Assembly: GCF_000203795.2 (NCBI RefSeq)
Contig: NW_006281103.1
Coordinates: 95,067 to 159,066, forward strand
DNA from: Batrachochytrium dendrobatidis JAM81
Taxonomy: Eukaryota; Chytridiomycota; Chytridiomycetes; Rhizophydiales
DNA: 64,000 bases
Direction of reading: 5' to 3'
Positions 10,451-20,880 of this stretch are shown one piece after another; the first letter of the stretch is position 1; each line of letters starts with the position of its first letter. The notes beneath the pieces are model-generated. The model ran no database searches. It was given only the letters and a program-made list of their open reading frames with translations, and had not been told where the DNA came from. Position numbers and translations under genes: made by a program.

Positions 10451-12808
10451 AGTATGAACGACTGTAGTTTTTTACAAACAATTGGTCAAACAACTGGTCC
10501 AACAACAGTCAAACAACTAGTCAAATGCAGGTCTGGACAATCGTCAAATACTAGTCAGAATACTGGTCAGAATAATAGTCAACAACTGGTCAGAATGCAG
10601 GTTGAAATGCAGGCTAAACTAGTCAAACACTCGTCAAACAACAGGTTGAAATGCAGGTCAAATACTCGTCAAACAACAGTCAAATACAAGTCAGAATACT
10701 AGTTAAAATGCAGGCCAAACAACTGGTCAATATATGGTTTAAACAATCGTCAAATACTGGTCAGAATAACAGTCTAAATACTAGTTGAAATGCAGGTCAA
10801 ACAGCCAGTCAATTAAACTATACAATGCATTTGATATTCATACATTACACAGTCAATCGTTAGTGAATATGCCAGTCATCGATATGTATTGTAGTCAAAT
10901 GAATGTATCGGCCATTGTAACATGAATATATGATGTGTATACAGTCCAAACTACAGTGTAATAAGTCATGTTTTGAGTGTGTTCCAGTTGCATCCAGTTT
11001 GACCTGCAGTCGTGATTATAACATGTTTCCAATTTAGTTGACGATATGGCCTGATGCATGTCCAGTATATAGTATGCATGTATACTCATGTTCAGTGTCA
11101 ATCTCATGCAACTAGTGTCACTATTGGTCAAAATATATCCAATTTTGGTATCATGTCAAACACTAGTGGTAAGTATAAATTGTATATTTTTTTGTAATTT
11201 CATGACAATACATGCATGCATCATACATACCAATGCAATATCCATATACTGTAGCAGTTTCATGCAACTAGTGTCAGTATTGGTCAAGATATTCGACATC
11301 AAACACGTCAAAACGACACCTTCGGACATGCATTTAGTGGTCATGATACACATTGATATATTGCACCAATGACAACGTAACTATACACACAATACATGAC
11401 TATATGTGTGCCATACATTGCAGGTCAATTGGTCAAGTTTTGCGACTATAATGCATGTTTTTGATTGCAAATTGACGACTGATTTGGATGATGTTTTGGA
11501 TATCGTGTATAGTTTGACAGTTTGTGCGTTCTATGCATGCCAGTATATCAAACATACTGTAGTTTGTCGTCCCGAGTTGATTGCAGTTGTCCTCGACATT
11601 GTACGACCACTGTAGACCGAGTTATTGACACGCCAAACATCGACTATAATATCCAACCTACAAAACGTCAGCTATTCAATTATTGTGTTACCAAACATGC
11701 ATGGATTGTATTGAAATTGTACATGATACAATACCAAGTGTATACAAGTATTGTCATGTCACCATATCAGCACAGGCTTGTGTATTGGTTGTGAAATCGA
11801 CCATTTAGTACGCGATTGTGATGATGCAAATGATCCACTTTGAACGCATATAACTTGGCCAATACTAGTTATTTCCCAACCATATTTAAACTGATTGTGT
11901 ATATGGTATATCACCATTGATTGAGCATGCATATGCACGGTTTGCAGACATTTATAATTCGTGTTAATGTGTTGTATGTGACCATTTGAAACTCGACTAA
12001 TTGTGGTGTATTTTGACATGTATATTGACTGATGTTTAGCGTCTGTTCATGTGCCATTGATGCACTATTGACATGCCATTGATGTGCCATTGATGTGATG
12101 TTGATTGAGTATGGTCGATGTAATACTATACACATTATAATCACGCAATAACAGTCAGTATTCATGCATAAAAACATCAAATTCAATCATGAATTGGTTA
12201 CGTATTTCAACTACTATGACGACATGAGTTTGATGGCATACTGTTCAGCAATGATATTGATTGTTTGGACATTGTTTCAGACACCCAGTCAAACACGTAT
12301 GATCACGTTGATATTTGGACTGTATACACATCATATATGCATATTGCAGTGAACAATATTGCATACAACTTTATCAATATTGATGCTATCGTATTCATGT
12401 ATTGACCATTGGAACATGAATATATGATGTGTATACAGTCCAAACTACAGTGTAATATCGTGTGTTTTGAGTGTGTTCCAGTTGCGTCTAGTTTGACCTG
12501 CAGTCGTGATTATAACATGTTTCCAATTTGATTGACGATATGGCCTGATGCATGTCCAGTATATAGTATGCATGTATGCTCATGTTCAGTGTCAATCGCA
12601 TGCAACTAGTGTCACTATTGGTCAAGATATATCCAATTTTGGTATCATGTCAAATACTAGTGGTAAGTATAAATTGTATATTTTTTTGTAATTTCATGAC
12701 AATACATGCATGCATCGTACATACCAATGCAATATCCATATACTGTAGCAGTTTCATGCAACTAGTGTCAGTATTGGTCAAGCTATTCGACATCAAACAC
12801 GTCAAAAC
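10450..12808 (+). repeat. C2 minisatellite, B unit 5 and the left part of B unit 6
   Basis: A short 11-mer tract (to about 10815) is followed by a full B unit that includes the 163-bp segment, then by a second B unit which is interrupted at 12808 by the LTR element. The tract 12040-12115 again carries the GTGCCATTGAT short tandem. Confidence 0.8.
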
Positions 12809-13115
12809 TGTGAGGATCACAGCCATGAGGACCTTAGATTAATTACCTTGCGGTTACACAACACCCTAAGGACTGATATTAACCTCCTTATGACCGATCG
12901 AATCCCTAAGGACTCATGTTGACCGCCGTAGGGACACGCAACTCACTAAGAACCTGTGCGATCCCTTTACGGCTGTACTCTTGTTGAGGTCTATAAATAG
13001 ACCATACTTGTCATATATGTTTACCTCAGTTTTATCAATAAAGTTCCTTGATCCTAGTTAGTAACAAGCACCTGGTTTCCCTTCGCCTTATTTTGCGATT
13101 AAGTACTTCCTGACA
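12809..13115 (+). repeat. 5' LTR with TATA box and poly(A) signal
   Basis: The LTR is bounded by TG...CA. TATAAATAG sits at 12992-13000. About 36 bases downstream is AGTTTTATCAAT (13028-13039), the likely start of the R region, overlapping an AATAAA signal (13038-13043). The 3' copy has the same order of elements. Confidence 0.92.
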
Positions 13116-13128
13116 CATTGATAAAACT
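13028..13128 (+). promoter_or_regulatory. Self-priming pair: transcript 5' end and primer-binding site
   Basis: ATTGATAAAACT at 13117-13128, one base after the 5' LTR, is the exact reverse complement of AGTTTTATCAAT at 13028-13039 inside the LTR. A normal tRNA primer site would begin with TGG, and this does not. In the Tf1/sushi group the 5' end of the mRNA folds back on the primer-binding site and is cleaved to prime reverse transcription. The spacing from the TATA box fits transcription starting at the first base of the complementary word. The structure is seen; the mechanism is inferred from that family. Confidence 0.8.
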
Positions 13129-13150
13129 CATATTTTCCTGAACCACCTGC

Positions 13151-13471
13151 TTGTTTACTCCTTGTCCCTGTTCCTATCACAACTTCAAACCTCGTCATGA
13201 AAAACTCCCCGGAAGCCCGTTCCAATCTAATCGACGGTTCCCCTCACTCACGACATTCCAGTCGCACTCGTCCAACGACATGCAGATTGACGCAGTCGTT
13301 CGAGGCCCGTTATCCACTCAAGAAAGGAAGCGCCAACGTCAGCTCGGCTTATGTTTATATTGTGGCCAGCCAGGTCACCGAGCTCATGACTGCCCTAGCA
13401 GAAGTCCTAATAGAAGAACGACTCCAGGTTCCAGATCCGTCGTTCGCCAAACCAACACCTTTGCCTCTTGA
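13151..13471 (+). CDS. Gag fragment with CCHC zinc knuckle
   Basis: This 106-residue frame holds a canonical retroviral-type zinc knuckle, C-x2-C-x4-H-x4-C, at residues 68-81 (13352-13393), preceded by a basic R/Q/E-rich stretch. That order is typical of the C-terminal part of Ty3/gypsy Gag in fungi, where the domain binds element RNA. The capsid part of Gag is missing, and the frame ends soon after the knuckle. The following frame (13468-13686) is probably broken sequence leading towards the lost protease. The ATG at 13151 is only the first available start; translation may begin elsewhere or not at all. Confidence 0.75.
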   Translation: MFTPCPCSYHNFKPRHEKLPGSPFQSNRRFPSLTTFQSHSSNDMQIDAVVRGPLSTQERKRQRQLGLCLYCGQPGHRAHDCPSRSPNRRTTPGSRSVVRQTNTFAS

Positions 13472-14067: not shown

Positions 14068-14374
14068 TGTGAGGATCACAGCCATGAGGACCTTAGATTA
14101 ATTACCTTGCGGTTACACAACACCCTAAGGACTGATATTAACCTCCTTATGACCGATCGAATCCCTAAGGACTCATGTTGACCGCCGTAGGGACACGCAA
14201 CTCACTAAGAACCTGTGCGATCCCTTTACGGCTGTACTCTTGTTGAGGTCTATAAATAGACCATACTTGTCATATATGTTTACCTCAGTTTTATCAATAA
14301 AGTTCCTTGATCCTAGTTAGTAACAAGCACCTGGTTTCCCTTCGCCTTATTTTGCGATTAAGTACTTCCTGACA
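14068..14374 (+). repeat. 3' LTR
   Basis: This 307-bp copy reads the same as the 5' LTR throughout and is followed by the second AAAAC target copy. Its AATAAA signal would end the element transcript. Confidence 0.93.
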
Positions 14375-14379
14375 AAAAC

Positions 14380-16745
14380 GACACTTTCGGACATGCACTT
14401 GATGGCCATGATACACATTGATATATTGCACCAATGACAACGTAATCATATACACAATACATGACTATATGTGTGCCATACATTGCAGTTGATTTCGACA
14501 TTGTACGATCACTGTAGACCGAGTTATTAACACGCCAAACATCGACTATAATATCCAACCTACAAAACGTCAGCTATTCAATTATTGTGTTATCAAACAT
14601 GCATGGATTGTATTGAAATTGTACATGATACAATACCAAGTGTATACAAGTATTGTCATGTCACCATATTGACACAGGCTTGCGTATTGGTTGTGAAATC
14701 GGCCATTTAATTTGTAATTGTGATGATGCAAATGGTCCACTTTGAACATGTATAACTTGGCCAATAGCAGCTTTGTCCCAGCCATATTTAAACTGGTTGT
14801 GTATATAGCATGTATGTATGATACTACATTGTCAAACTGCATTAGTCAATACATTATAAATTAGTGTATTTCATGTTGGACGTTTCAAGACATTTAAAAT
14901 TCCATCAATATCAGCATGTTCTAACCTTGACAATTAGCGTCTGTTCACAAGCCATTGACAAGCCATCAAGTCGACCAATGCAGTACTATACTAGTTGACA
15001 TATTCTGCAAATATCGACAGTATTCGTAGAAAAAAAAACAGAAAACTTGATCTGTTGTAATGTCAACTGACCTGACGACATAGCTTCGGCTGTATATATT
15101 TTAGCGCTGACATGACCCTGATTACCACCATAATTGACCGCTGCATTAATATATCCGCATTCGGACACTCCAAACGTCATACTAACCACTCGTGTCTGAT
15201 ATTATCCGGACATTCGGACAGGATACCATGTCTGATATTCGGACAATATATCCAACTTTGTCAATATTGATGCTATCGTATTGATATATTGACCATTGTA
15301 ATATATATACATGATATGTATACAGTCCAAACCACAGCGCAATAAGTCGTGTTTTGAGTGTATACCGACGTGTCCAATTCGGTCGACAGTCGTGACTATA
15401 ACATGTTGTTAGTTTAGTTGACAACATGCCATGATGCATGTCCAATATATAGTATGTATATACATACATGTCCAGTATCAATCGCATGCATGTAGTGTCA
15501 TTATTCATCGAGATACACGCATTTCCAGTTTCATGTCAAATATTCGTGCTATGTGCAAGTTGTATTTTTTGCATGTATCGTATGTCAACACATGCATGCA
15601 TTGTACATACCAATGCCATGTGCATATACTGTAGTAGTTTCATGCAACTAGTGTCACTATTGACGACTATATATGACATCAAACACGTCAAAACGTCATT
15701 TTCGGACTTTGGTCGGCCCATTCCATGTCAGATATTGACCATAGTGCGTCAGTGACATCATAATTCGATCCGCAACACATAATTACATATATGTGGTGCA
15801 TACCAAGTCATTTGGTCGACTTTTGTGGTCATAGTCGATATTAAAGTTTTTAGTTTGCAATTGGTTTGAAACGACGAGCTCTACTTGTTATTTTAATCTA
15901 GTATCGTGTCTATCAGTCAATCAACAATTTATCTTGTATGCAAATGCGTCAAAAATACATGTATTATATCGTTCTGATTCGATATTAGTCGGCATTGACA
16001 CTGTACGACCACTACTGACCAAGTTATTAACATATTATCGACTAGCTCATACTGTCCCAGCATGTCGTCAAGAAAACCATCATATATTACAGTGTTGTGC
16101 CAACAAACATGCATGGATTGTATTGAAATTGGACATGATACAATATCAAGTATATACATGTATTGTCATGGCATCAAACTGGCATGATATCATGTATTGG
16201 TTGTGTAATAGACCATAATATATGCCAACAAAACGCTCCAAATCAGGCATGATTATAGTCGTAAATATATTATTGTGACTGTGTTGTTGGACAGTGACTA
16301 TCAATGACTATCAATAACTACTAGTGACTATCAATAACTGTCAATGACCATCAATAACTATCAATAACTGTAAAAACGATCAAGGTTTGTAGCCTGACAG
16401 TGTACAATCGAGTTTATTAAATCGTGTAATTCTGGTCGTTATTCGACTTTACCCAACACTTGAACACTCGATTGTTGCATACAGTTTGACAGTCGTCATA
16501 CATGGCCATGTGTATGCTGTTGTATAACCAGAGACGCAGTAGTGTTGGCATGTGTTGGTTGAATCGACATACTCGACACATACCAGTCAATGCAGTTTTG
16601 TCCGAATCCCTATTTTTGTTGGCTGTAGTTTTGCACAAACTTGAAACAGTCATCGTAACAGTGTTACTGTCATTGTCATCAAGCTGTAGTATGTGTAACT
16701 GTAGTATTGGTTGAGCCACTGACCATGTATTCGAGTATGAACGAC
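14380..16745 (+). repeat. Right part of B unit 6 and satellite unit A, copy 3
   Basis: The right part of the interrupted B unit resumes after the retroelement and leads into A3 (15111-16745). The match to 8085-10330 has a constant offset of 6406 up to a poly-A run near 8625/15030 and 6405 beyond it, a single-base change in run length. Confidence 0.85.
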
Positions 16746-18015
16746 TGTAGTTTTTTACAAACAATTGGTCAAACAACTGGTCCAACAACAGTCAAACAAC
16801 TAGTCAAATGCAGGTCTGGACAATCGTCAAATACTAGTCAGAATACTGGTCAGAATAGTAGTCAACAACTGGTCAGAATGCAGGTTGAAATGCAGGCTAA
16901 ACTAGTCAAACACTCGTCAAACAACAGGTGCAAATGCAGGTCAAATACTCGTCAAACAACAGTCAAATACAAGTCAGAATACTAGTTAAAATGCAGGCCA
17001 AACAACTGGTCAATATATGGTTTAAACAATCGTCAAATACCGATCAGAATACTAGTCTAAATACTAGTTGAACTGCAGGTCAAACAGCCAGTCAATTAAA
17101 CTATACAATGCATTTGATATTCATACATTACACAATCAATCGTTAGTGAGTATGCCAGTCATCAAACAACTGGTCAGAATGCAGGTTGAAATACTGGTTA
17201 AACTAATCAAACACTCGTCAAATACACTCGTCAAATACTCGTCAAAATACTCGTCAAATACAAGTCAGAATAACAGTCAAACAACAGGTCAGAATGCAGG
17301 TTTAGACAATCGTTAAACAATCGTCAAATACTGGTCAGAATGCAGGTTGAAATGCAGGCTAAACTAATCAAACAACAGGTTGAAATGCAGGTCAAATACT
17401 CGTCAAATACTCGTCAAATACTCGTCAAAATACTGGTCAGAATAACAGTCTAAATACTAGTCAGACAACTGGTCAATATGTGGATTAAACAATCGTCAAA
17501 CAATCGTCAAATACCGGTCAGAATACTAGTTTAAATACTCGTCAAATACACTCGTCAATTAAACTATACAGTGCATTTGATATTCATACATTACACAATC
17601 AATCGTTAGTGAATATGCCAGTCATCGATATGTATTGTAGTCAAATGAATGTATCGGCCATTGTAACATGAATATATGATGTGTATACAGTCCAAACTAC
17701 AGTGTAGTATCGTGTGTTTTGAATGTGTTCCAGTTGCGTCCAATTCAGTCGACAGTCGTGATTATAACATGTTTCCAATTTGATTGACGATATGGCCTGA
17801 TGCATGTCCAGTATATAGTATGCATGTATACTCATGTTCAGTGTCAATCGCATGCAACTAGTGTCACTATTGGTCAAAATATATCCAATTTTGGTATCAT
17901 GTCAAATACTAGTGGTAAGTATAAATTGTATATTTTTTTGTAATTTCATGACAATACATGCATGCATCATACATACCAATGCAATATCCATATACTGTAG
18001 CAGTTTCATGCAACT
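16745..18015 (+). repeat. C3 minisatellite with a truncated B start, then B unit 7
   Basis: The C3 tract is interrupted at about 17090-17165 by ~75 bp of the B-unit start and then resumes, so at least two C tracts were fused. B7 begins near 17560 and switches directly to A sequence near 18015, inside the shared word GCAACTAGTGTCACTATTG. Confidence 0.8.
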
Positions 18016-20880
18016 AGTGTCACTATTGACGACGATATACGACATCAAACACGCCAAAACGTCATTTTCGGACTTTGGTCGGCCCATTCCATGTCAGATA
18101 TTGACCATAGTGCATCAATGACATCATAATTCGATCCGCAACACATAATTACATATATGTGGTGCATACCAAGTCATTTGGTCGACTTTTGTGGTCATAG
18201 TCGATATTAAAGTTTTTAGTTTGCAATTGGTTTGAAACGACGAGCTCTACTTGTTATTTTAATCTAGTATCGTGTCTATCAGTCAATCAACAATTTATCT
18301 TGTATGCAAATGCGTCAAAAATACATGTAGTATATCGTTCTGATTCGATATTAGTCGGCATTGACACTGTACGACCACTACTGACCAAGTTATTAACATA
18401 TTATCGACTAGCTCATACTGTCCCAGCATGTCGTCAAGAAAACCATCATATATTACAGTGTTGTGCCAAAAAACATGCATGGATTGTATTGAAACTGGAC
18501 ATGATACAATATCAAGTGTATACATGTATTGTCATGGCATCAAACTGACATGATATCATGTATTGGTTGTGTAATAGACCATAATATATGCCAACAAAAC
18601 GCTCCAAATCAGGCATGATTATAGTCGTAAATATATTATTGTGACTGTGTTGTTGGACAGTGACTATCAATGACTGTCAATAACTACTAGTGACTATCAA
18701 TAACTGTCAATGACCATCAATAACTATCAACAACTGTAAAAACGATCAAGGTTTGTAGCCTGACAGTGTACAACCGAGTTTATTAAATCGTGTAATTCTG
18801 GTCGTTATTCGACTTTACCCAACACTTGAACACTCGATTGTTGCATGCAGTTTGACAGTCGTCATACATGGCCATGTGTATGCTGTTGTATAACCAGAGA
18901 CGCAGTAGTGTTGGCATGTGTTGGTTGAATCGACATACTCGACACACACCAGTCAATGCAGTTTTGTCCGAATCCCTATTTTTGTTGGCTGTAGTTTTAC
19001 ACAAACTTGAAACAGTCATTGTAACAGTGTTACTGTCATTGTCATCAAGCTGTAGTATGTGTAACTGTAGTATTGGTTGAGCTATTGACCATGTATTCGA
19101 GTATGAACGACTGTGGTTTTTTACAAACAATTGGTCAAACAACTGGTCCAACAACAGTCAAACAACTAGTCAAATGCAGGTCTGGACAATCGTCAAATAC
19201 TAGTCAGAATACTGGTCAGAATGCAGGCTAAACTAATCAAACAACAGGTTGAAATGCAGGTCAAATACTCGTCAAACACTGGTCAAATACTAGTCAAATA
19301 CTAGTCAAAATACTCGTCAAATATGATCAAATACAGGTCAGAATAACAGTCAAACAACTGGTCAGAATGCAGGTCTGAACAATCGTCCAATACTGGTCAG
19401 AATGCAGGTTGAAATACTGGCTAAACTAATCAAACACTCGTCAAATACACTCGTCAAATGCAGGTCAAACAACTCGTCAAATACTCGTCAGAATAACTGG
19501 TCAAATATGGTCAAACAACAGGTCAAACAACAGGTCAAACAATCGTTAAACAATCGTCAGAATACTGGTCAGAATGCAGGCTAAACTAATCAAACACTCG
19601 TCAAACAACAGGTTAAAATACTAGTTAAAATACTCGTCAAATACTCGTCAAATACAAGTCTAAATACTAGTTGAAATGCAGGTTTAAACAATCGTCAAAT
19701 ACTGGTCAGAATAACAGTCTAAATACTAGTTAAAATGCAGGTTAAATACAAGTCAAATACACTCGTCAAACAGCCAGTCAATTAAACTATACAATGCATT
19801 TGATATTCATACATTACACAATCAATCGTTAGTAAATATGCCAGTCATCGATATGTATTGTAGTCAAGTGAATGTATCGGCCATTGTAACATGAATATAT
19901 GATGTGTATACAGTCCAAACTACAGTGTAATATCGTATGTTTTGAATGTGTTCCAGTTGCATCCAGTTTGACCTGCAGTCGTGACTATAACATGTTTCCA
20001 ATTTAGTTGACGATATGGCCTGATGCATGTCCAGTATATAGTATGCATGTATACTCATGTTCAGTATCAATCGCATGCAACTAGTGTCACTATTGGTCAA
20101 GATATATCCAATTTTGGTATCATGTCAAATACTAGTGGTAAGTATAAATTGTATATTTTTTTGTAATTTCATGACAATACATGCATGCATCGTACATACC
20201 AATGCAATATCCATATACTGTAGCAGTTTCATGCAACTAGTGTCAGTATTGGTCAAGATATTCGACATCAAACACGTCAAAACGACACCTTCGGACATGC
20301 ATTTGATGGTCATGATACACATCGAATATTGCACCAATGACGACGTAATCATATACACAATACATGACTATATGTGTGCCATACATTGCAGTTGATTTCG
20401 ACATTGTACGACCACTGTAGACCGAGTTATTGACACGCCAAACATCGACTATAATATCCAACCTACAAAACGTCAGCTATTCAATTACTGTGTTATCAAA
20501 CATGCATGGATTGTATTGAAATTGCACATGATACAATACCAAGTGTATACAAGTATTGTCATGTCACCATATTGACACAGGCTTGCGTATTGGTTGTGAA
20601 ATCGACCATTTAGTACGCGATTGTGATGATGCAAATGGTCCACTTTGAACGCATATAACTTGATCAATACCAGCTTTGTCCCAGCCATATTTAAACTGAT
20701 TGTGTATATGGTATATCACCATTGATTGAGCATGCATATGCACGGTTTGCAGACATTTATAATTCGTGTTGAATGTGTTGTATGTGACCATTTGAAACTC
20801 GACTAATTGTGGTGTATTTTGACATGTATATTGACTGATGTTTAGCGTCTGTTCATGTGTCATTGATGCACCATTGACAT
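18015..20880 (+). repeat. Partial unit A4, C4 minisatellite and B unit 8; right edge of array
   Basis: A4 lacks its first ~470 bp because of the B7 fusion. It is followed by C4 (19110-19775) and B8. Similarity to the array stops near 20880, just after CACCATTGACATG. Confidence 0.8.

What the first reader, a model, noticed from the sequence alone, without database searches (positions are those of the whole stretch)
12992..13128. Tf1-type self-priming signature in a chytrid LTR element
The 12 bases at 13117-13128, one base after the 5' LTR, are the exact reverse complement of 13028-13039 inside the LTR, and that LTR word begins ~36 bases after a TATAAATAG box, where transcription should start. 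No TGG tRNA-type primer site is present. This is the arrangement by which Tf1/sushi elements prime reverse transcription with the 5' end of their own mRNA.
Basis: partly seen in the sequence, partly recalled or inferred. Interest (0 to 1): 0.82.

Follow-up and report, generated by a model that had tools for sequence, protein, structure and literature searches.

The report
Self-primed retrotransposon in a chytrid
A short mobile element in the genome of a chytrid fungus carries, just behind its left repeat, a 12-letter word that mirrors the expected start of its own RNA, and distant relatives keep such a match with quite different letters, so the element most likely starts its copying with a piece of its own RNA instead of a borrowed tRNA, as is already known for yeast Tf1.

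Summary
The window copy is a 1.57-kb non-autonomous element with identical LTRs and a 5-bp target duplication. Long relatives in the genome (most likely Batrachochytrium dendrobatidis) are Ty3/gypsy chromoviruses.

In contaminant chromovirus loci of unnamed hosts the place behind the LTR complements a word 29-33 bases after a TATA box, with other letters: ACTCTTGATCAA, AAGGCGAACAA, AAGGTGAACAA, CAGTCTCGACAA. The composite pattern is in 11 of 39 sequences (three are this family, one probably chance), none on minus strands; shuffles average 0.66. Five of these six loci come from one metagenome assembly. L084 and L023 are exceptions. A Tf1-like duplex behind the site is supported; one before it is only predicted.

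Transcription start, primer cut and priming are inferred. Self-priming is known for Tf1/sushi and proposed for Tcn1, so this is a new member of a known kind. Some relatives also carry the primer's complement in U3.

The parts
12804..12808 (.). target site duplication, left copy (AAAAC)
   Evidence: the flanks without the element match 6 other window repeats over 119-120 bp at 94-97%
12809..13115 (+). 5' LTR, 307 bp, TGTG...GACA
12992..13000 (+). TATA box TATAAATAG
13028..13039 (+). putative self-primer AGTTTTATCAAT, inferred first 12 bases of the transcript
   Evidence: start of transcription not measured
13037..13042 (+). AATAAA, possible polyadenylation signal overlapping the primer's 3' end (R region)
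   Evidence: sequence; role inferred
13041..13053 (+). left arm of the predicted duplex 5' of the primer site (13041-13044 and 13047-13053)
   Evidence: minimum-energy fold only; not tested by itself
13060..13078 (+). LTR arm of the second duplex, pairs with 13140-13159
   Evidence: p 0.012; 17 pairs, 0 of 1000 shuffles as strong, where the pieces were chosen after seeing the duplex
13097..13108 (+). right arm of the predicted duplex 5' of the primer site (13097-13103 and 13105-13108)
   Evidence: minimum-energy fold only
13117..13128 (+). primer binding site ATTGATAAAACT, exact complement of 13028-13039
13140..13159 (+). leader arm of the second duplex, pairs with 13060-13078 across the primer duplex (pseudoknot)
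13352..13396 (+). gag zinc knuckle remnant (CLYCGQPGHRAHDCP) in an interrupted frame
   Evidence: the gag frame of L029 has zf-CCHC PF00098
13689..13920 (+). four tandem 58-bp units, matching one stretch of the long relative L029
14055..14064 (+). polypurine tract GGAGGGGAGA, 3 bases before the 3' LTR
   Evidence: sequence; role inferred
14068..14374 (+). 3' LTR, identical to the 5' LTR
14375..14379 (.). target site duplication, right copy (AAAAC)

Best explanation
The window holds a recent insertion of a non-autonomous derivative of a chytrid chromovirus. Shown: the LTR and leader anatomy, the exact complement, its conservation in the family, co-variation in relatives outside the genome. Inferred: transcription starts at or near 13028, so AGUUUUAUCAAU is the 5' end of the RNA; it folds back on 13117-13128, helped by a predicted duplex before the site (13041-13053 with 13097-13108) and a crossing duplex behind it (13060-13078 with 13140-13159); the partner element's RNase H nicks behind about base 12; the 12-nt RNA then primes minus-strand synthesis into U5 and R, and the strand transfers to the 3' R as in Tf1. 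Proteins come in trans from long relatives.
For: Exact 12-nt complement, rare by chance. All 10 LTRs of the 21 aligned that are followed by the leader have both words intact (primer re-checked). 4 of 5 diverged LTRs (67-69% identical elsewhere in LTR 165-307) keep the 12 primer bases uninterrupted. Co-variation: composite pattern in 11 of 39 sequences, 0 on minus strands, shuffle mean 0.66 sequences, maximum 3 (100 sets); 9 sequences with 11 or more bases against a shuffle mean of 0.02 such matches. L082 and L095 differ by one base in the compared 9 bases of the word, with the matching change in the site. In L081, L082, L083, L095, L098 and L111 the site is followed by a frame similar to the chytrid gag, then pol. 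L029 pol has RT, RNase H, integrase and chromodomain. In the RT tree the self-word loci that had enough sequence lie on one side of a 100/99 branch with fish and frog rows; plant-like L107 with a TGG site lies on the other. Downstream duplex: p 0.012, 0.008, 0.002 in window, L028, L029; the three-duplex leader of Tf1 is described in passages of PMC10085805.
Against: No transcript 5' end was measured. Inside this genome the words hardly vary (one solo LTR with a base change; decayed L023), so co-variation rests on outside loci only 43-50% identical in the best pol segment; five of the six clean ones come from one metagenome assembly and their LTR ends are inferred from one LTR. L084 keeps only about 7 bases. 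Gut-fungus-like sisters L085 and L089 show TGG two bases behind TTACA and no self-word was found in them. The upstream duplex has no significant test in the window (p 0.122, and that test settled on another pairing than the fold); the leader's fold energy is about one standard deviation below resampled leaders (-18.3 against -12.9, sd 5.0). The downstream duplex is not significant in L081, L082, L083, L095, L098 or L111.
Confidence: 0.85

Rival explanations
1. Another RNA, such as an internal tRNA fragment or other small RNA, primes at 13117 and the LTR word is incidental.
For: Half-tRNA primers exist in other LTR elements (passages of PMC6317226). Only 63 of 1527 tRNA candidates were scored, so the tRNA set is a lower bound. 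L085 and L089 may have a tRNA-type site.
Against: None of the 63 tRNA matches lies within 6362 bases of any of the 58 copies of the word. No TGG follows the LTR. It does not explain why both words change together in relatives.
Confidence: 0.06
2. The pairing is a leader structure for packaging, dimerisation or translation and not a primer.
For: In the predicted fold the two words form the closing stem of the leader, and compensatory change supports pairing, not priming as such.
Against: Position directly behind the LTR, absence of a TGG site, length 11-12 and start at the TATA-defined end of the RNA are what priming needs.
Confidence: 0.06
3. The match is chance or an inherited relic with no present role.
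For: The window copy encodes no enzyme; a match of 12 or more bases arises in 11 of 20,000 resampled LTRs.
Against: Six insertion sites of the short form have six different 5-bp target duplications (read) and 0-5 differences in seven LTR comparisons, so copies moved with both words; co-variation outside.
Confidence: 0.03

Closest known systems
Tf1 and Tf2 of Schizosaccharomyces pombe (Tf1/sushi group)
   Same: Chromovirus whose primer site is complementary to the first 11 bases of its RNA, with a three-duplex leader (passages of PMC7175516 and PMC10085805); here 12 bases, one supported and one predicted extra duplex.
   Different: Transcript start, RNase H cut and priming are not shown here; the window copy is non-autonomous; gag and pol of the long relative are separate overlapping frames.
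Tcn1 clade, including BatDenTy3-1 of B. dendrobatidis and Tcn1 of Cryptococcus
   Same: Novikova 2010 places the one gypsy copy counted in B. dendrobatidis JEL423 in this clade (passages of PMC2864245); Tcn1 was proposed to self-prime (PMC7175516 passage), and most plant Tcn1-clade elements are predicted to (PMC6317226 passages).
   Different: The passages seen say nothing on the primer site of BatDenTy3-1; that it is the same element as L028/L029 is inferred. For SM-Tcn1 of spikemoss neither tRNA priming nor self-priming was found.
TRIM-type non-autonomous LTR elements
   Same: Short internal part between two LTRs, no working pol (TRIM described in the abstract of PMC6934838, seen in the listing).
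   Different: Carries its own primer word in the LTR and keeps a gag piece.

Membership tests
Tf1/sushi self-priming group | primer site directly behind the 5' LTR complementary to a word in the LTR | tested here: met
[quoted passage not shown]
   only TATA spacing: 36 bases here, 29-33 in L081, L082, L083, L095, L098, L111, 44 in L108
Tf1/sushi self-priming group | no tRNA-type TGG site | tested here: met
Tf1/sushi self-priming group | words co-vary among relatives | tested here: met
   (the 9-of-9 own pairs are true by selection); exceptions L084 and L023
Tf1/sushi self-priming group | duplex between the LTR and the bases behind the primer site | tested here: met
   p 0.012, 0.008, 0.002 in window, L028, L029
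Tf1/sushi self-priming group | duplex between the LTR and the bases before the primer site | tested here: inconclusive
   in the predicted fold; p 0.122 in the window for another pairing
Tf1/sushi self-priming group | RNase H cut of the mRNA 5' end and its use as primer | not testable with these tools
   needs cDNA or RNA ends
Tf1/sushi self-priming group | Ty3/gypsy pol with chromodomain | tested here: met
   for the long relative L029; the window copy lacks pol
Tf1/sushi self-priming group | RT falls in the group | tested here: inconclusive
   tree of 48 rows without named Tf1, sushi or Tcn1 rows
Tcn1 clade | RT and integrase position with Tcn1 | not tested
   only the published placement of BatDenTy3-1, passages of PMC2864245
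tRNA-primed LTR element | TGG plus tRNA 3' complement behind the LTR | tested here: not met

The most novel reading that the evidence does not exclude
In five relatives (L082, L083, L095 and L111, which share nearly one word, and L098; L110 marginal) the last 36 bases of U3 also carry the complement of the primer, and it changes together with primer and site between L082 and L095. R stands at both ends of the RNA but U3 only at the 3' end, so this third word could lock the 3' copy of the primer in a hairpin and leave the site free for the 5' copy: a decoy mask in self-primed elements. The chytrid element itself lacks it (p 0.857). A palindromic promoter element at the start site is the plainer alternative.
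Probability: 0.2. Interest if true: 0.6.

Novelty: new member of a known kind. Interest (0 to 1): 0.42.

Why it matters
It gives sequence evidence for self-primed reverse transcription in a chytrid element, with co-variation among distant relatives instead of a single match, and shows a non-autonomous derivative that carries its own primer. It also predicts where the R region starts, which one transcript 5'-end data set can check.

Tried and rejected
Viral contigs gave no relative (14 stretches matched a pattern, none confirmed). PF00078 found only two RT copies in the genome, so co-variation could not be tested between families inside it. Of the other integrase-bearing loci I scanned two: L045 matches RVT_2 and L044 matches copia-type domains without an RT match in the piece held; their LTRs were not in the fetched stretches. 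Copies of the word at C24:5018, C11:11911 and window 7370 lie in unrelated sequence and were dropped; further copies outside the family were not read. The L106 hit (10 AT-rich bases, no gag-like match behind it) is in the count but is treated as chance. L110 (14 bases) has no TATA box in range and is not in that count. L108 has only 9 bases, at 44 from the TATA box, and no gag-like match. The 'own pair 9 of 9' figures are true by selection; only the shuffles are a test. MAFFT gave L023 12/12, but one search shows the word split by an insertion, so it is not counted as intact. The exact-string check finds only intact sites by construction; the alignment is the fair view. Many of the 36 loci do not reach the LTR-gag junction; I made no strict denominator beyond the 39 sequences scanned, and looked by eye only at the leaders or contig starts printed. 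L111-L115 were too short for the tree.

Full report
What was claimed.

The observation. All of it is there. The LTRs are 12809-13115 and 14068-14374, 307 bp, identical, TG...CA, with a 5-bp duplication AAAAC outside. AGTTTTATCAAT is at 13028-13039, ATTGATAAAACT at 13117-13128, one C between LTR and site. TATAAATAG starts at 12992. There is no TGG in 13112-13160. In 20,000 first-order resamplings of the LTR a complement of 12 or more bases to the first 25 leader bases arose 11 times; 20,000 random window places never gave 12 against the real LTR. The host flanks joined without the element match six other repeats in the window at 94-97% over 119-120 bp, so this is an insertion into a repeat with the empty site visible.

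What the element is. The internal part is about 950 bp: leader, remnants of gag with a zinc knuckle in an interrupted frame, a short pol-derived piece, four 58-bp units that match one stretch of the long relative, and a polypurine tract. No ORF of 150 aa or more lies in it. The window lies in a genome of 23,491,484 bases in 33 contigs, and a search with LTR plus leader gave 27 matches, a lower bound. Six sites carry a short form, each with its own 5-bp duplication (AAAAC, TCAAT, GTTTG, CAACG, GTCAT, CCACT; read), and seven LTR comparisons show 0-5 differences. Two places, on C4 and C12, hold 5-kb relatives; the C4 copy has open gag (listed as 324 aa) and pol (1276 aa) frames, both counted from a TTG, and the C12 copy has a TGA in the RT region. 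Pfam shows gag, RT, RNase H, integrase and a chromodomain. The C4 copy has no matching target duplication and a deletion in its 5' LTR. The pol region searched is 100% identical to a protein named as Batrachochytrium dendrobatidis (P0003), so the host is most likely that species.

Conservation inside the genome. Of 21 LTRs aligned, 10 are followed by the leader, and all 10 have the site and the primer word intact (primer re-checked). One of the other LTRs, at C2:36318, has a base change in the word. Five more diverged LTRs are 67-78% identical outside the word in LTR 165-307; four keep the 12 bases uninterrupted; L023 has an insertion in it and a site one base shorter. The overlapping AATAAA may add to this conservation. 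This is conservation and not co-variation.

Co-variation outside. A scan of genome contigs with an alignment of the L029 pol and 11 relatives gave 36 loci in bacterial and archaeal records, presumably contaminants; their hosts are unnamed. The composite pattern, TATA box, word of 9 or more, then CA, 0-3 bases and the exact complement, is present in 11 of 39 sequences (36 loci, two long copies, window element), in none on the minus strand, and in 0.66 on average (maximum 3) of 100 resampled sets; matches of 11 or more bases are in 9 sequences against a mean of 0.02 such matches. Three of the 11 are the chytrid family and L106 is probably chance. The remaining words are ACTCTTGATCAA (L081), AAGGCGAACAA (L082, L083, L111), AAGGTGAACAA (L095), CAGTCTCGACAA (L098) and AGCAATTAG (L108, only 9 bases). 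L110 has AACAACAGGAGTAG without a TATA box in range. In the first six loci the word starts 29-33 bases behind the TATA box and the site starts 2 bases after an inferred LTR end in ACA; behind the site comes a frame similar to the chytrid gag, then pol. L081, L082, L083, L095 and L111 are from one assembly, L098 from another. L082 and L095 differ in one of the 9 compared primer bases with the matching change in the site. Against: L084 shows the region but keeps only about 7 paired bases, read by eye, and its gag matches in broken pieces; plant-like L107 has TTGGTATCAGAGC (that TGGTATCAGAGC is the usual plant tRNA-Met site is recalled), and gut-fungus-like L085 and L089 have TGG two bases behind TTACA, so not every relative uses this arrangement. 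In a 48-row tree the self-word loci with enough sequence lie on one side of a 100/99 branch with fish and frog rows, L107 on the other; L111 was too short for the tree. No named Tf1, sushi or Tcn1 row was in it.

Leader structure. For Tf1 the literature describes a primer duplex plus two further duplexes between sequences beside the site and the LTR (PMC10085805, passages). Here the minimum-energy fold of 13028-13140 contains the primer duplex and 13041-13053 with 13097-13108; its energy, -18.3, is about one standard deviation below resampled leaders (-12.9, sd 5.0). 13060-13078 pairs with 13140-13159 in 17 pairs around a CC/CC loop, crossing the primer duplex: p 0.012 in the window, 0.008 and 0.002 in the long copies. 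On pieces chosen after that, 0 of 1000 shuffles were as strong in the window; p was 0.004 in L023, 0.028 in L074 and 0.081 in L076. The upstream test gave p 0.122 in the window and settled on another pairing than the fold; its lowest value is 0.006 in L095. The downstream duplex is not significant in L081, L082, L083, L095, L098 and L111 (p 0.34 to 0.94), is 0.066 in L110 and 0.002 in L108.

tRNA. 63 of 1527 tRNA candidates were scored in the genome, a lower bound; the nearest of 58 copies of the word is 6362 bases from any of them.

Mechanism and limits. The best reading is self-priming as in Tf1, with proteins supplied in trans to the window copy. The start of transcription, the cut and the priming are inferred. 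The kind is known: Tf1 and sushi (passages of PMC10085805 and PMC7175516), Tcn1 of Cryptococcus proposed (PMC7175516), plant Tcn1 predicted (PMC6317226). Novikova 2010 (passages) places the one gypsy copy counted in B. dendrobatidis in the Tcn1 clade. A search for Batrachochytrium with self-priming listed two papers: that one, whose self-priming passages concern a spikemoss element, and one whose title is about a water sampler. Chytrid with LTR retrotransposon and primer binding site listed none. I found no statement on the chytrid element's primer in the passages seen; supplements were not read and most subscription papers are not in the library.

An extra pattern. In L082, L083, L095, L111 and L098 the 36 bases before the primer contain its complement (p 0.002 or less), L110 marginally (p 0.048), L084 p 0.098; not in the three chytrid copies tested, L081 or L108. 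The first four share nearly one word, so the independent cases are two or three. The change between L082 and L095 is in all three words. A hairpin that hides the primer copy in the 3' R is one reading, a palindromic start-site element another.

Noticed in passing
L082, L083, L095, L098, L111 (36 bases upstream of the primer word): U3 end carries a third word, complementary to the self-primer, absent from the chytrid element.
   Followed up: partly
L074-L077 (C26:1503700-1505300 and C5:66300-68050): Inverted-repeat-ended derivatives in which the leader and primer site, reversed, abut a forward R-U5 piece; flanks of the two places match pairwise, so probably one event later duplicated.
   Followed up: partly
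G000 C4 and C12 (L029, L028): A long gypsy copy with open gag and pol frames, whereas PMC9926174 (passages) reports no fully functional or autonomous gypsy elements in B. dendrobatidis; both long copies lie at contig ends.
   Followed up: no
L032 (C1:1049500-1054000): Two short-element starts with the same left flank CCATCCAACG about 1.1 kb apart, the first apparently without a 3' LTR: a tandem duplication or an assembly artefact.
   Followed up: no
window 16280-19800: Minisatellite-like arrays of units such as GTCAAATACTCGTCAAA among kilobase-scale repeats that also surround the insertion.
   Followed up: no
L031 (C15:61395-64166): Tandem short elements sharing a middle LTR.
   Followed up: no
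L085, L089: Gut-fungus-like sisters of the chytrid element show TGG two bases behind TTACA, perhaps a tRNA-type site.
   Followed up: no
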